A DNA stretch of 64,000 nucleotides from NCBI GenBank assembly GCA_027068415.1, contig JAMOTD010000009.1, positions 285,516-349,515 on the forward strand. The letters run 5' to 3'. Made by a program: the position numbers and the translations under genes. Shown here piece by piece: positions 13,242 through 48,437 of the stretch. This stretch comes from Desulfurobacteriaceae bacterium (GTDB lineage Bacteria; Aquificota; Aquificia; Desulfurobacteriales; Desulfurobacteriaceae). Positions within the stretch are counted from its first letter, which is position 1. Each line of letters opens with the position of its first letter. The notes under the pieces were generated by a model. That model saw nothing but the letters and a program-made list of their open reading frames with translations, did no database searches and had not been told where the DNA came from.

Positions 13242-14320
13242 TTTTGCTCCATTTCTTTTAAAAGAACGAAGTCGTCCCTATGGATACAGAGCTTGCTCCT
13301 CTCAAGCTCCTCTTTTGAACACCTGACAATTCCCTTCCCTATCAGCTCCCCGTTGAGGCCGTAAACCTCAACGGCGTCTCCCTTCTTAAACTCCCCTTCG
13401 GTCCTTTTAACCCCTTTAGACAGAAGGCTTTTCCCGTTTTTAACGAGGGCCTCTTCAGCCCCCTCGTCTATAAAGAGCTTTCCGACGGGTTTCATCAAAT
13501 AGAGGATTCTGTATCCCTTGGCCTTCAGCTTCTTGCTGGGCATTACGAGGGTTCCCAACCTCTCCCCTTTTAAAATCCTCTCAATTACCCTCTCCTCCCT
13601 TCCGCCGGCAATGATTACGGGAATTCCCTTTTTGGCTGCCTTTGCCGCCGCCTCAATCTTGGTCGCCATTCCGCCGGTTCCGTAAGTGCTCTGGGTTGAG
13701 AAGTCGCACTTCTCAAGGGCTTCCTTTATGTCCTCAATGACGGGAATGAGGCGGGCGTCGGGATACCTTTCCGGGTTTTTATCAAAGACTCCGGGGCTTG
13801 TTGTGAGGATTATTAAGAGGTCTGCGTCAACAAGAACCGAGACGTGTGCCGAGAGGTTGTCGTTATCCCCTATCCTGATTTCCTCTGTGCTGAGCGTATC
13901 GTTTTCGTTGACTATCGGGATTACTCCCAGCTTGAAGAGGGCGCCGAAGGTGTTTTTTGCGTTGTGGAACCTTTCTTTTGAGCGCAGGTCTTCGGCTGTC
14001 AGGAGAACCTGTCCCGTCTCTACTCCGAATTTCTGAAAGGCCTTTCTATACTCGGCCATAAGGTAGGGCTGGCCTACCGCCGAGAGTGCCTGCTTTTCGG
14101 CCAGGGAAAAGGGCTTCCTCTTTAGCTTCAGGGCCTTTATGCCCGCCAAAACCGCCCCGGAGCTCACCAGAACTACCTCTATCCCCTTCTCCCTTACCTC
14201 CGCTATCTGGGAGCAGAGGGACTCTATAAACTCCCTGTTTAGCCCCTCACGGCCCGCAAGGAGCTGGGAGCCTACCTTAACCACTATTCTCTTTGCCTTT
14301 CTCAGCATTTTCCCTTTCAA
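13238..14320 (-). CDS. proB: Glutamate 5-kinase with PUA domain
   Basis: [44 protein letters not shown]-terminal PUA. Confidence 0.97.
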
Positions 14321-15314
14321 GCTCCTTTAATTTCCGGGCGACGAAGTTTAAGAACTCCTCCATTCCCTCGCCGCTGACCGCCGAAACTGCAAAGAAAGGA
14401 TAACCTTTTTCCTCAAAGTACCTCTTTAACCTCTCTACTTTGCTCCTGTCGGTCAGAGCGTCAATTTTCGTTCCCACAACTATCTGGGGTTTTTTCGCCA
14501 GCTCCGGAGAGTAGAGCTCCAGCTCCCTGTTTATCTTCTCAAAGGCCTCCTCCGGCTCCATCTCGGGGTTTGTAAGGTCAATCAGGTGCAGGAGGAGTTT
14601 TGTCCTCTCAACGTGCCTTAAGAACTCGTGTCCTAAACCCTTCCCCTTGTGGGCACCCTCAATCAGGCCGGGAATGTCGGCAACCACGAAGGAGTAATCC
14701 CCGACCCTCGTAACCCCCAAAATCGGCCTGAGGGTTGTGAATGGATAGTCGGCAATCTCGGGCTTTGCCTTTGAAATCCTGCTGAGGAACGTTGACTTAC
14801 CGGCGTTGGGGAAGCCTACAAGTCCTACATCTGCAAGGAGCTTCAGCTCAAGCTCTATCCACCGCTCCTCTCCGGGCTGGCCCGGCTCTGCAAAGTCGGG
14901 AGCTCTCCGGGTAGGGGTTGCAAAGGCGGCGTTTCCCCTTCCGCCTCTACCTCCTCTGGCAACTATTAACCTCTGGCCGTGCTCGGTCAGGTCTCCGAGG
15001 ATTTCTCCCGTCTCGGCATCTCTAACTACCGTTCCCACCGGAACCTTGATTTCAAGGTCTTCTCCGCTCTTTCCGCTCCTTTTGTTTCCCTCTCCGTGCC
15101 TTCCCCTCTCGGCCTTGTAGTGGCGCTTGTACTTAAAGTCAAGGAGGGTGTGGACGTTCCTGTCGGCTACTAAGACTACGTCTCCCCCCTTGCCTCCGTC
15201 TCCGCCTGAGGGGCCTCCCTTGGGGACGAACTTCTCCCGCCTGAAGGCGACGCAGCCGTTCCCCCCGTGGCCTCCCTGAACGAAAACCTTAGCTCTATCT
15301 ATAAACTGTGCCAT
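14277..15314 (-). CDS. obgE: GTPase Obg
   Basis: [51 protein letters not shown]. Confidence 0.98.
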
Positions 15315-15382: not shown

Positions 15383-15880
15383 ATGAAGAGGCTCTTGGCT
15401 CTTCTTCTTCTGATTCCTCTCCTCATCTTCGGCGGCTGTTTTAAGGAGAGGGAAGGGGTAAGTCAGCAGAGAGAAGTTAAGGTCTTAGAGGAGCTCGGCT
15501 ACCGGGGGCTTGAGTTCTACGAGAGGGTCGGCGGCCACACGATAAGCCGCCACGTAGGTAAGAGCTATAAGTGGCTGGTTGAGAGGCTGAAAGAGGAGCC
15601 CAGGCTCAGGGCCGCAAGCTCATTCTACGACCTTGCAACTGCAGAAAGGTGCGTGAGGCGGGCAATTTACTTTAACAGGGAAAAGGTCTTAAGGTGGCTC
15701 AGAAGCCCCCATGCCCCAGATAAGCTCGTTTTAATCTACACCTGCTCTGAGCCGGTCGGAATAAAGGTTGAAAGGGTAAAGAGAGACGTCTTCAGGGAGA
15801 GCACCTCAAGGCGCGTTAGGGTTATATTAAAGAGAGACAGAACCTACGGCTTCATAGTCCTGACTGCATATCCCTCTTAG
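15383..15880 (+). CDS. Signal-peptide/lipoprotein-type RNase A-like (CdiA-CT family) putative toxin
   Basis: MKRLLALLLLIPLLIFGGC signal; GGHTISRHVGKSYKWLVERLKEEPRLRAASSFYDLATAERCV...RVRVILKRDRTYGFIVLTAYPS matches the bacterial CdiA-CT RNase A domain pattern. Confidence 0.82.
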   Translation: MKRLLALLLLIPLLIFGGCFKEREGVSQQREVKVLEELGYRGLEFYERVGGHTISRHVGKSYKWLVERLKEEPRLRAASSFYDLATAERCVRRAIYFNREKVLRWLRSPHAPDKLVLIYTCSEPVGIKVERVKRDVFRESTSRRVRVILKRDRTYGFIVLTAYPS

Positions 15881-15893
15881 GGAGGAGGAAGGC

Positions 15894-16205
15894 GTGGACT
15901 ACGAGAAGGAGAGGGTTTTTGAGGAGAGGTACCCTAACTTCTACTCCCTCCTTGCCGCCTTTGCCTACGGAGTTGAGGAGGGGAAGTCTGACTGGGACAT
16001 CGTAAGGGAAGAGGTCGGGGACTGTGAAAAGGCCACCGAGCTCCTTCGGGAGATTGAGGAGTTCCTGAATAACAGGCCTGCCGAATTTGAGCACGTTGTC
16101 GGGGACGTTGCAAACTACTACTTTGACAACACCAACGACTTTTTAAGGTGGATAGAGCAGGTTAAGAGGTACCTCCTCTCAATAAAGGGTAAGCTCTGTG
16201 GATAG
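15894..16205 (+). CDS. Putative CdiI-like immunity protein (GTG start)
   Basis: RYPNFYSLLAAFAYGVEEGKSDWDIVREEV...LLREIEEFLNN...VANYYFDNTNDFLRWIEQVKRYL; SD ggaggagg; 13 bp after the RNase A-like gene. Confidence 0.6.
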   Translation: MDYEKERVFEERYPNFYSLLAAFAYGVEEGKSDWDIVREEVGDCEKATELLREIEEFLNNRPAEFEHVVGDVANYYFDNTNDFLRWIEQVKRYLLSIKGKLCG

Positions 16206-16938
16206 GGAGAGGGTTGACCTTTCCACTTTCCTTAACGAAAAGTGCCGGTTTTACCAGTTTAAGGAAGGGTTTCGCTTCGGAACCGATACCTTCCTCCTTG
16301 CCGACTTTGTAAGGTTAAAGGGGAAGGAGAGATTGATAGACCTGGGGACGGGCTGCGGCGTTATCCCGATTCTCCTTCTCCTTAAGTACCCCGGGATAAC
16401 GGCCGTCGGCCTTGACGTCCTTGAGGAGAACGTTAGCCTTGCCCTTAAAAATGCCGAGATTAACGGGGTCTCTGACAGGTTCAGGGCCGTTCACCTTAAC
16501 GTCAAAGACGTAAAAAAGCTCTTTAGGAGCGGGGAATTTGACGTCGTCGTCTCAAACCCGCCCTTTATAGAGGTAGGGAGGGGAAACCTTTCAAAAGGAG
16601 GGCACAGGGCCGTTGCAAGGCAGGAGCTCCTTGCCACCCTTGAGGACTTCGTAAAGGCCGCATCCTACCTCTTAAAGAACAGGGGCAGGTTCTACCTTCT
16701 CCTTCCCACTGTTAGGTTTGTTGACGGCCTCTGCCTTTGCAGGAAGTATTCTTTAGAGCCCAAGAGACTCCGCTTTATTTACCCGGAGGAGGGCAGGGAG
16801 GCAAACCTTTTCCTATTAGAGTGTTTAAAGGGCGGAGGTAAGGGTACTACCGTTGAGCCTCCCCTTGTTGTTTACTCTGACGCCAAGAAGAGAGTTTATA
16901 CCGAAGAGGTAGAGGAGAAGTACTCCTCTTTTCTTTAA
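16198..16938 (+). CDS. TrmN6-like N6-adenine methyltransferase (GTG start)
   Basis: LIDLGTGCGVIPILLLLKYP, VVSNPPFIEVGRGNLS. Confidence 0.9.
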   Translation: MDRERVDLSTFLNEKCRFYQFKEGFRFGTDTFLLADFVRLKGKERLIDLGTGCGVIPILLLLKYPGITAVGLDVLEENVSLALKNAEINGVSDRFRAVHLNVKDVKKLFRSGEFDVVVSNPPFIEVGRGNLSKGGHRAVARQELLATLEDFVKAASYLLKNRGRFYLLLPTVRFVDGLCLCRKYSLEPKRLRFIYPEEGREANLFLLECLKGGGKGTTVEPPLVVYSDAKKRVYTEEVEEKYSSFL

Positions 16939-44857: not shown

Positions 44858-46552
44858 TTAGTACTTCCTCTCCTCCGGAGGGAACTTTGTAATCACTACC
44901 GGCTTCCACGAGAGCTGGTAGCTCCCGTCCTCTCCCAGCTTAATTACCGAGTGTTTAAGGAAGTTCTTATCGTCCCTTTCGGGGTAGTCCTTCCTTGCGT
45001 GAGAGCCCCTACTCTCCCTCCTCTCAACTGCCGGGATTGCAATTGCCGGGGCGAGCTCAACGAGGTTCAGAAACTCAAGGACGGAGATAAGGTCTGTGTT
45101 GAACTTCTTGCTGGTGTCGTAAACCTTTACCTCCTTTGCCCTCTCCTTTATCTCGTAGAGCTTTTCAAGGCCTTCTTTCATGGAGCTCTCTTCCCTGAAA
45201 ACTCCGAAGTGCTTCATCATAACCTCTCCCAGCTCCCTCCTTAGCTGGGGCATCTTCTCCTTCCCGCTTGCCTCCATGAGCTCCAAAATTCTCTTCTCGT
45301 CGTCCTTGACTTTAGCAAACGAGGGGTTGGTCTCGGGGGCATCATCTGCGTACTTAACCGCTTCAAGGGCCGTAAGCCTTCCGTAAACGAGAACGTCAAG
45401 GAGGGAATTTCCTCCCAGCCTGTTTGCTCCGTGAACCGAGATGCAGGCACACTCGCCGGCGGCGTAGAGTCCTTTAATCGGCGTCCTTCCGAGCTTGTCG
45501 GTGTCAATTCCCCCCATTGAGTAGTGGGCGGTGGGGGCAATCGGTATAGGCTCCTTAACGGGGTCAACTCCCTCGTATAGGATTGCGTGCTCCCTCGTCT
45601 GGGGTAGCCTTTCGTTAATCCTCTTTTCCCCTAAGTGGGTCAGGTCAAGGCAGATGTAGTCTCCGTTGGGGCCACAACCCCTTCCCTCGTCAATCTCCGT
45701 CTGGATAGCCCTTGCAACTATGTCCCTGGGTGCAAGCTCCATCTTCTCGGGGGCGTACCTCTTCATAAACCTCTCGCCGTCCTTATTCCTTAAGTACCCT
45801 CCTTCGCCCCTTGCACCTTCGGTTACCAAAATTCCCGTCTTTGCAAGGCCCGTAGGGTGAAACTGGATAAACTCCATGTCCTTTAAGGGCAATCCCGCCC
45901 TTAAAACGGCAGCCGTTCCGTCTCCGGTATTGCCCAGGGCGTTTGAAGTTCTGTTCCAGTAAACCCTTGCGTGTCCTCCCGTTGCAAGGATAACCGCCTT
46001 TGTCTTTATAAGGTGAACACCTCCGTTCCTTACGTCCCAGGCTGTAATACCCTCAACCCTCTCGCCGTTGTGGATTATTGAGAGTAGGAACCACTCGTTT
46101 AGGAAGGTTACGTTGTTCTTGAGGCACTGCTCGTAAAGGGTCTGGAGTATGTAAAAGCCCGTCTTGTCTGCGGCATAGCAAGTTCTGGGGAAACTCGCTC
46201 CTCCAAAGGGTCTCTGGGCAATCCTTCCGTCGGGGCGCCTTGAGAAGGGAACTCCCCTGTGGGCTATGTCGTAGATTACGGCCGCCCCCATCTTGCACAT
46301 TATGTCAACCGCATCCTGGTCTGCTAAGAAGTCGCTTCCCTTAACCGTATCGTAGGCATGGGCTTCGGGGCTGTCGCCTACAGAGTGGGTTAGGACTGCG
46401 TTAATTCCCCCCTCTGCAGCACCTGTGTGGGAGCGGGTGGGGTAGACTTTAGTTATTACGGCAACTTTCAGGATTGTGTTCTCGGCCGCCCAGAGCGCCG
46501 CGTAGAGTCCGGCTCCTCCACCGCCGACTATAACTATATCGTACTCCAGCAT
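44858..46552 (-). CDS. frdA: Succinate dehydrogenase/fumarate reductase flavoprotein subunit, set 1 (GAAEGG)
   Basis: [52 protein letters not shown]. Confidence 0.96.
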   Translation of the reverse strand: MLEYDIVIVGGGGAGLYAALWAAENTILKVAVITKVYPTRSHTGAAEGGINAVLTHSVGDSPEAHAYDTVKGSDFLADQDAVDIMCKMGAAVIYDIAHRGVPFSRRPDGRIAQRPFGGASFPRTCYAADKTGFYILQTLYEQCLKNNVTFLNEWFLLSIIHNGERVEGITAWDVRNGGVHLIKTKAVILATGGHARVYWNRTSNALGNTGDGTAAVLRAGLPLKDMEFIQFHPTGLAKTGILVTEGARGEGGYLRNKDGERFMKRYAPEKMELAPRDIVARAIQTEIDEGRGCGPNGDYICLDLTHLGEKRINERLPQTREHAILYEGVDPVKEPIPIAPTAHYSMGGIDTDKLGRTPIKGLYAAGECACISVHGANRLGGNSLLDVLVYGRLTALEAVKYADDAPETNPSFAKVKDDEKRILELMEASGKEKMPQLRRELGEVMMKHFGVFREESSMKEGLEKLYEIKERAKEVKVYDTSKKFNTDLISVLEFLNLVELAPAIAIPAVERRESRGSHARKDYPERDDKNFLKHSVIKLGEDGSYQLSWKPVVITKFPPEERKY

Positions 46553-46736
46553 TTAGGAGGACCTCCAAAAATAAAATTATCTGCATTTTATTAAGTAAAT
46601 AAGGTAAATGAAATTTTACAAAATTTTTACATTTAGGAGAATGGGGGAGTTTAAACCTTTTGTGTTCAACGATTTACGAATTTAATACAATTCAGTCAAT
46701 TAACTATTAATAACTAAAGTAAACACTGGAGGAGCA

Positions 46737-48437
46737 ATGCTTACCTACGACATAGTAATAGTCGGGGCAGGAGGAGGTGGCCTCTACGCAGCCCTTGAGA
46801 CGAGCCGCAGGAAAGGTTTAAAGGTTGCCGTTCTCAGTAAGGTCTATCCTACCCGTTCCCACACCGGTGCCGCTCAGGGAGGCATCAACGCCGCTTTGGG
46901 GAACGTCGCTCCCGATAGCCCCGAGAAGCACGCCTACGATACCGTAAAGGGGAGTGACTTTTTGGCCGACCAAGACGCAGTTGAGCTAATGTGTGAGATG
47001 GCTCCCAAGATTATCAGGGAAATGGAGCATATGGGTCTTCCCTTTTCCCGCCTTCCCGACGGGAGAATCGCCCAGAGGCCTTTCGGAGGGGCTTCATTCC
47101 CCAGAACCTGCTACGCTGCAGACAAAACAGGCCACGTTATGCTTCAAACCCTCTACGAGCAGTGTATAAGGTTCGGGGTTGAGTTTTTAAACGAGTGGTT
47201 TGCTCTCTCTCTGGTCCACAACGGTGAGAGGATTGCAGGTTTAACAGCCGTCAACCTTAGAACGGGAGAGATTGTGGGAATAAGGGCAAAGGCCGTTATT
47301 CTCGCAACAGGCGGACATACAAGAATTTACTGGAAGAGGACTTCAAACGCCCTCGGTAATACCGGAGACGGCCCCGCAATGGCTTTAAGGGCGGGAGTTC
47401 CCCTTAAGGATATGGAGTTCGTCCAGTTCCACCCTACAGGCCTGAGGAGAACCGGAATCTTAGTAACCGAGGGTGCAAGGGGCGAGGGTGGATACCTCAT
47501 AAACGCTGAGGGCGAAAGGTTTATGAAGAGGTACGCTCCTGAGAAAATGGAGCTCGCCCCCAGAGACCTCGTCTCCCGTGCGATTGAGACCGAGATAATG
47601 GAGGGGAGGGGTTTTGAGGACGAGGAAGGCAATAAGTTCGTTTATCTTGACTTAAGGCACCTTGGAAGAAAGAAGATTTTAGAAAGGCTCCCCCAAATCA
47701 GGGAGCTGGCAATTGACTTTGAGGGGGTTGACCCGATTGAGGAGCCCATACCCATAAGGCCGACGGCCCACTACTCAATGGGGGGAATTGATACCGACAA
47801 GTACGGCAGGACGGTTATTAAAGGGCTCTACGCCGTAGGTGAGTGCGGCTGCGTCTCTGTCCACGGAGCAAACAGGTTAGGAGGAAACTCCCTCCTTGAC
47901 ATTGTAGTTTTCGGGAAGATTGCCGGAGAGGACGCCGCAGAGTCTGTTGTCGGCCTTGAGCTTGTTGACTTCCCAGAAGTTGAGGTTAAAGAGCAGGAGG
48001 AGAGGATTAAATCCCTCTTTGACGGGGAGGGCTCTGAAAAGCTCTCTCAGTTAAGGAGAGAGCTGAGCGACGCAATGAGCGAAGGGGTCGGGATTTTCAG
48101 GGACGAGGAGAGAATAAAGAGGGCTTTGGAGAAGGTTAGGGAAATTAAGGAGAGGGCGAAGAAGCTTAAGGTTTACGATAGGGAGCTAACCTTCAACACC
48201 AACCTCCAGCAGACATTGGAGTTTTTAAACATGGTTGAGGTTGCCGAGACGATTGCCCTCGGAGCTCTTGAGAGGAAGGAGAGCAGGGGAGCTCACGCAA
48301 GAACCGACTACCCCAAGAGGGACGACGAGAACTTCTTAAAGCACTCGGTTATCAGGAGGGGTGAGGACGGGGAGCTCCGCCTTACCTGGAAGCCGGTTGT
48401 AATCACAAAGTTCCAGCCGGAAGAGAGGAAGTATTAG
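46737..48437 (+). CDS. Succinate dehydrogenase/fumarate reductase flavoprotein subunit, set 2 (GAAQGG)
   Basis: [52 protein letters not shown]. Confidence 0.96.

What the first reader, a model, noticed from the sequence alone, without database searches (positions are those of the whole stretch)
15383..16205. Compact, self-exported RNase A-like toxin with adjacent CdiI-like immunity gene
Seen: ORF 15383-15880 has a signal/lipobox-like start (MKRLLALLLLIPLLIFGGC), and nearly all of its mature part is GGHTISRHVGKSYKWLVERLKEEPRLRAASSFYDLATAERCV...RVRVILKRDRTYGFIVLTAYPS. Established knowledge: this reads as the bacterial CdiA-CT RNase A-like domain, known from Yersinia kristensenii CdiA. The active-site set recalled for that toxin (His, Arg 11 residues later, then Thr-X-Tyr near the C-terminus) is present here as H57, R68, T161 and Y163. 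Seen: 13 bp downstream, with a strong SD, is a 103-aa acidic ORF (RYPNFYSLL...DWDIVREEV...VANYYFDNTNDFLRWIEQVKRYL) resembling CdiI-type immunity proteins. Inference: this is a toxin-immunity module in which the toxin carries its own export signal instead of being the tip of a large CdiA, Rhs or T6SS effector. No cdiB, cdiA, VgrG or Rhs gene is present in the window. The delivery route would be new if confirmed.
Basis: partly seen in the sequence, partly recalled or inferred. Interest (0 to 1): 0.9.

Follow-up and report, generated by a model that had tools for sequence, protein, structure and literature searches.

The report
Lipoprotein RNase toxin with immunity gene
A heat-loving vent bacterium carries a very small, membrane-anchored RNA-cutting toxin next to what looks like its antidote gene; the parts are of known kinds, but carrying the toxin as a bare lipoprotein, with no large delivery protein, is an unusual and testable arrangement.

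Summary
ORF 15383-15880 is a clear bacterial RNase A-like domain: Pfam PF18431 at E 4.5e-29, predicted fold TM 0.89 to the Yersinia kristensenii toxin. H57, R68, T161, Y163 and the lipobox cysteine are invariant in all 10 genomes that have it. It is a carrier-less lipoprotein: signal, about 30-residue linker, toxin domain.
The downstream ORF matches no Pfam family directly. Its best outside relative is a CdiI_2 (PF18593) immunity protein, linked by profile comparison. CdiI_2 is the partner of RNase A-like toxins on four plasmid loci examined, so a cognate immunity role is likely, but not shown.
New here: the pair is one fixed chromosomal copy between obg and a methyltransferase gene in Desulfurobacteriaceae, inherited vertically, not polymorphic. 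Seven relatives keep the immunity gene without the toxin; one of them shows a decayed toxin remnant. T6SS VipB was not found in five toxin-bearing genomes, and the one ShlB-like hit followed up was an Omp85 protein.
"New delivery route" is overstated: SitA lipoprotein toxins, secreted Ribocin and NCBIfam's RNase_A_lipo are precedents, and no delivery was tested. A housekeeping surface RNase is not excluded. New variant of a known kind.

The parts
15383..15880 (+). carrier-less RNase A-like lipoprotein toxin gene (165 aa)
   Evidence: PF18431 E 4.5e-29; NF041883 RNase_A_lipo 60 bits over nearly the whole length but under its 200-bit cut-off; conserved in 10 genomes
15383..15439 (+). signal peptide and lipobox (FGGC, lipidated Cys19)
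   Evidence: C19 invariant in 10 sequences, with LSGC, LTGC, ISGC, VAGC and similar at the same place
15440..15529 (+). about 30-residue linker; no escort, repeat or carrier domain
   Evidence: model shows one helix at residues 22-38 and low confidence before residue 30
15530..15880 (+). RNase A-like domain, residues 50-165
   Evidence: model pLDDT above 90 over most of it; Foldseek to 5e3e_B TM 0.89, rmsd 1.8
15551..15553 (+). codon of H57 (= H175 of CdiA-CT-YKris)
   Evidence: alignment; invariant
15584..15586 (+). codon of R68 (= R186)
15863..15865 (+). codon of T161 (= T276)
15869..15871 (+). codon of Y163 (= Y278)
15881..15893 (+). 13-bp gap with Shine-Dalgarno (GGAGGAGG)
   Evidence: sequence; similar short gaps in the relatives
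15894..16205 (+). small acidic all-helical protein, probable CdiI_2-related immunity protein
   Evidence: remote homology to a PF18593 protein; six-helix model, pLDDT 90
16198..16938 (+). context: small-domain methyltransferase, start overlaps the immunity gene by 8 bp
   Evidence: PF05175 3.6e-13; synteny in all 17 genomes that have the immunity gene
14277..15314 (-). context: divergent obg GTPase gene
   Evidence: PF01018 8.1e-68; synteny

Best explanation
A fixed chromosomal toxin-immunity pair. The first gene makes an RNase A-superfamily ribonuclease that is exported by Sec, cut and lipidated at Cys19, and held on the outer face of the inner membrane or on the outer membrane (inferred). 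There it cannot reach the cell's own RNA. When it enters a neighbouring cell lacking the second gene, or re-enters its own, the domain would cut RNA using H57, R68, T161 and Y163 (inferred from the homologous enzyme). The second gene makes a cytoplasmic acidic CdiI_2-related protein that would cover the basic active site and protect kin (inferred). The pair was probably acquired once in the family and inherited vertically; several lineages then lost the toxin and kept the immunity gene. Shown: domain, predicted fold, active site, lipobox, fixed location, remote CdiI_2 homology, toxin decay in one relative. Not shown: RNase activity, binding, delivery.
For: PF18431 102 bits and TM 0.89 to 5e3e. 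Invariant catalytic residues and lipobox. The downstream profile scores a CdiI_2 protein at 33.9 bits against at most 16.7 in 20,000 shuffles of it; hhalign probability 94; that protein is PF18593 at 1.7e-6, over the cut-off, and lies beside an Imm33-like ORF. CdiI_2 proteins sit directly downstream of RNase A-like toxin genes on Pantoea, Rhizobium and Streptomyces plasmids. Opposite charges. Pair adjacent in 10 of 10 toxin-bearing genomes. The downstream gene evolves about half as fast, relative to three reference genes, in toxin-bearing lineages (a single clade contrast). Toxin remnant in G004 beside an intact immunity gene.
Against: The downstream gene occurs in seven genomes without the toxin; only G004 of the six gaps that could be examined holds a toxin remnant. 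No Pfam match in any of the 17 members, no NCBIfam match in the three scanned, and no Foldseek match. Profile comparison with four other CdiI_2 proteins finds nothing. The pair is single-copy and not polymorphic, unlike usual interbacterial toxins. No entry domain and no known delivery machine was found.
Confidence: 0.57

Rival explanations
1. A housekeeping surface RNase. The lipoprotein digests RNA outside the cytoplasm, for nutrient or phosphate scavenging or surface defence. The downstream gene is an older resident of the obg-methyltransferase region with its own role, or one only loosely linked to the RNase.
For: Downstream gene also in toxin-less genera branching outside the toxin clade, in the same place; fewest-steps mapping puts it before the RNase. 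The RNase is single-copy, vertical (AU test does not reject the species tree) and under purifying selection, not polymorphic.
Against: The downstream protein is related to CdiI_2, the very family that partners this RNase type elsewhere, which chance adjacency would not predict. The extra constraint on it in toxin-bearing lineages.
Confidence: 0.27
2. A stand-alone toxin cassette that serves as a recombination donor for a larger delivery protein.
For: Stand-alone toxin cassettes are known in polymorphic toxin systems (PMC3482391).
Against: It has its own ribosome site, start, signal peptide and invariant lipobox. One PF18431 match per genome and none in the rest of the phylum; no TPS-domain exoprotein hit, though that search had no positive control.
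Confidence: 0.05
3. An intracellular toxin-antitoxin module acting in the producer's own cytoplasm.
For: Two small adjacent genes, basic toxin and acidic partner.
Against: Toxin gene comes first, lipobox invariant in all 10 sequences, no PADLOC match, no phage or viral-contig relative of the toxin.
Confidence: 0.05

Closest known systems
CdiA-CT toxin of Yersinia kristensenii (PDB 5E3E, PF18431)
   Same: same domain, fold (TM 0.89) and four catalytic residues
   Different: there the tip of a giant CdiA exoprotein; here a 165-aa lipoprotein with no carrier
NCBIfam NF041883, RNase A-like domain-containing lipoprotein
   Same: same architecture end to end (residues 7-165 on 10-166 of 168)
   Different: 60 bits against a 200-bit cut-off, so not a member of that exact family; I could not see which organisms or partner genes belong to that model
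Ribocin of Pseudomonas aeruginosa (PMC13189344)
   Same: compact signal-peptide RNase A-fold enzyme with catalytic H60, T159, Y161 in nearly the same places
   Different: the paper does not mention a lipoprotein or a partner immunity gene; it acts on the nematode ribosome; only 15% identical to CdiA-CT-YKris
SitA/SitI lipoprotein toxins of myxobacteria (PMC5562445, PMC8546572)
   Same: nuclease toxin that is itself a lipoprotein, followed by an immunity gene, no dedicated secretion apparatus
   Different: SitA has an escort domain of about 375 aa, is polymorphic and uses TraA/TraB outer membrane exchange
RNase A-like toxin plus CdiI_2 gene pairs on Pantoea, Rhizobium and Streptomyces plasmids
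   Same: same toxin domain family followed by a CdiI_2-type gene
   Different: mostly larger proteins, the Rhizobium one in a T6SS cluster and the Streptomyces locus beside WXG100 genes; their partners match CdiI_2 directly

Membership tests
Bacterial RNase A-like toxin domain (PF18431) | profile score over the curated cut-off | tested here: met
   102 bits against 27
Bacterial RNase A-like toxin domain (PF18431) | His/Arg/Thr/Tyr active site | tested here: met
   H57, R68, T161, Y163 invariant in 10 sequences
Bacterial RNase A-like toxin domain (PF18431) | RNase A-like fold | tested here: met
   predicted model; Foldseek E 2.8e-11, TM 0.89
Bacterial RNase A-like toxin domain (PF18431) | metal-independent RNase activity and toxicity | not testable with these tools
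   needs bench assay
Contact-dependent inhibition (CdiB-CdiA-CdiI) system | giant CdiA exoprotein and CdiB transporter | tested here: not met
   toxin is a 165-aa protein; no TPS-domain hit in 7 genomes, without a positive control; the ShlB-like hit followed up in G000 is an Omp85 protein, two weaker ones in G002 were not examined
T6SS effector | T6SS apparatus in the genome | tested here: not met
   no VipB in 5 toxin-bearing genomes, E. coli control positive
CdiI_2 immunity protein (PF18593) | direct profile match | tested here: not met
   no CdiI_2 match in any of the 17 members scanned; 0 of 136 genomes of the phylum
CdiI_2 immunity protein (PF18593) | homology to an accepted member | tested here: met
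   Acinetobacter CdiI_2 protein: tblastn 6e-3 in 7.3 Gb, hhalign 94, 33.9 bits against 16.7 for shuffles
CdiI_2 immunity protein (PF18593) | neutralises the neighbouring toxin | not testable with these tools
   no complex prediction available
Bacterial lipoprotein | N-terminal signal with lipobox cysteine | tested here: met
   conserved in 10 of 10 by alignment; no SignalP or LipoP run
NF041883 RNase_A_lipo | score over 200 bits | tested here: not met
   60.4 bits
SitA lipoprotein toxin | long N-terminal escort domain | tested here: not met
   only about 30 residues between Cys19 and the toxin domain
Polymorphic toxin system | variable toxin domain on a shared carrier | tested here: not met
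   one conserved toxin type, fixed site, vertical inheritance not rejected

The most novel reading that the evidence does not exclude
A minimal interbacterial weapon: a bare RNase domain on a lipid anchor, with no escort or carrier, moved between neighbouring cells in high-temperature biofilms by vesicles or membrane contact. Relatives that lost the weapon keep the antidote as resistance genes.
Probability: 0.3. Interest if true: 0.75.

Novelty: new variant of a known kind. Interest (0 to 1): 0.5.

Why it matters
If true, it would show that an RNase A-like toxin can work between bacteria with only a lipid anchor and a short linker, and it would put this kind of warfare in a thermophilic, deep-branching phylum. 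The natural set of toxin-bearing, toxin-decayed and immunity-only relatives makes it possible to test whether orphan immunity genes still protect. One toxin-bearing genome has a contig of 1,682,965 bases, the published chromosome length of cultured Thermovibrio ammonificans HB-1 (PMC3570795), so a host for tests probably exists.

Tried and rejected
Direct family search of the downstream ORF in Pfam, NCBIfam, PADLOC and PDB sequences gave nothing usable. Foldseek of its model found no convincing match and did not return the CdiI of 5E3E. hhalign against four plasmid CdiI_2 proteins found nothing, and adding the Acinetobacter sequence to the profile did not reach them. I first took the downstream gene to be unrelated to the toxin because it occurs in toxin-less genomes; the CdiI_2 link demoted that to a rival. 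Phage records and viral contigs held no relative of the toxin, and viral contigs none of the downstream ORF. The genome-contig scan with a single protein found one locus. The ShlB model's hit in G000 looked like a CdiB-type transporter but is an Omp85 protein. The primary paper on the Y. kristensenii toxin (PMC5435912) is not held; its residues are taken from PMC9086364 and PMC9970974. The relative-rate test is one clade contrast, and the three reference genes differ among themselves by up to about 1.6-fold, so it is only suggestive.

Full report
What was checked. The first, 15383-15880, is a strong match to PF18431, the bacterial CdiA-CT RNase A domain (E 4.5e-29), and to the crystal structure 5E3E (1.6e-11). 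An AlphaFold model built from ten sequences has mean pLDDT 89 and overlays 5E3E at TM 0.89, rmsd 1.8. The published active site H175, R186, T276, Y278 (PMC9086364) corresponds to H57, R68, T161, Y163. These residues, and the lipobox cysteine C19, never vary in the ten sequences.

Where it lives. The window belongs to a genome of about 1.6 Mb. A same-genus relative is a Desulfurobacteriaceae (Aquificota) MAG: the locus found lies on a contig of the same length, 19,928 bases, as that of G003 (taxonomy). Of 136 genomes of the phylum, ten have the domain, one copy each, all in two genera of one family.

Neighbourhood. In all ten the order is obg (divergent), toxin, downstream ORF, methyltransferase. 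The downstream ORF is also present in seven family members without the toxin, again between obg and the methyltransferase where the contig allows a check. The spacing from obg is about 110-130 bp in four of them and 270 bp in G004. In G006 a 1.9-kb stretch holding another predicted lipoprotein gene intervenes, and in G012 the contig begins just before the ORF. In G004 the 270-bp gap holds a decayed toxin C-terminus (RLILKRRGKFGFIVFTAYP; 34.7 bits against at most 21.9 in shuffles), while none of the five other gaps examined shows a remnant.

History. A tree of PheT, Obg and the methyltransferase puts the toxin in one clade (g1, g6 and, as a remnant, g2), with downstream-ORF-only genera g5, g3 and g4 outside it and g7 lacking both (some supports are low, 53-75). 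The toxin tree and the ten-genome immunity tree do not reject the species topology, which fits vertical inheritance of both. Fewest steps would have the downstream gene first and the toxin later. Acquisition as a pair with repeated toxin loss needs more steps, but one such loss is directly visible in G004, and the match of immunity family to toxin family is hard to explain if the two met by chance. I do not regard the order as settled.

What the downstream protein is. It is a 103-aa acidic, six-helix protein. It matches no family directly and no solved structure convincingly. In the plasmid collection its best hit by far (E 6e-3; next E 4) is an unannotated Acinetobacter ORF. That ORF is PF18593 CdiI_2 at 1.7e-6, above the cut-off, and lies near an Imm33-like immunity ORF and transposase-like ORFs. 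hhalign gives probability 94 over 86 columns, and the profile scores it 33.9 bits against a maximum of 16.7 in 20,000 shuffles. Independently, CdiI_2 genes follow RNase A-like toxin genes on four plasmid loci. Two separate facts therefore point to the same immunity family. The link rests on one intermediate sequence, and four other CdiI_2 proteins were not recovered.

Function. The toxin has an export signal and only about 30 residues before the catalytic domain. VipB was not found in five toxin-bearing genomes. The ShlB-like hit followed up in G000 is an Omp85 protein; two weaker ones in G002 were not examined. The TPS-domain search found nothing but had no positive control. The best reading is a lipid-anchored RNase with a cytoplasmic antidote. 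RNase activity, neutralisation and delivery are inferred. The main rival is a housekeeping surface RNase whose neighbour does something else. The relative-rate result leans towards a functional link but is a single contrast.

Novelty. Domain, active site and probable immunity family are known. Lipoprotein toxins (SitA), a secreted compact RNase A-fold enzyme (Ribocin) and an NCBIfam RNase A-like lipoprotein model are known too. The combination, a bare lipoprotein RNase A toxin with a divergent CdiI_2-like partner fixed in a thermophile chromosome, is a new variant.

Noticed in passing
L041:5920-6188 (G004): Decayed C-terminus of the toxin gene between obg and an intact immunity gene, a natural toxin loss with retained immunity.
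   Followed up: yes
L042:3803-5482 (G006): A different 559-aa predicted lipoprotein gene on the minus strand lies between obg and the orphan immunity gene.
   Followed up: no
L144:5379-6974: Apparent cluster of immunity-like genes (CdiI_2, Imm33-like and a small acidic ORF) between transposase-like ORFs in an Acinetobacter record filed as a 4-Mb plasmid and left unannotated in this stretch.
   Followed up: partly
window 44858-48437: Two paralogous fumarate reductase/succinate dehydrogenase flavoprotein-like genes (by eye) lie back to back on opposite strands.
   Followed up: no
L139:1699-5000: Streptomyces plasmid with two genes annotated RNase A-like close together behind WXG100 genes, and a CdiI_2 protein with two matched stretches.
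   Followed up: no
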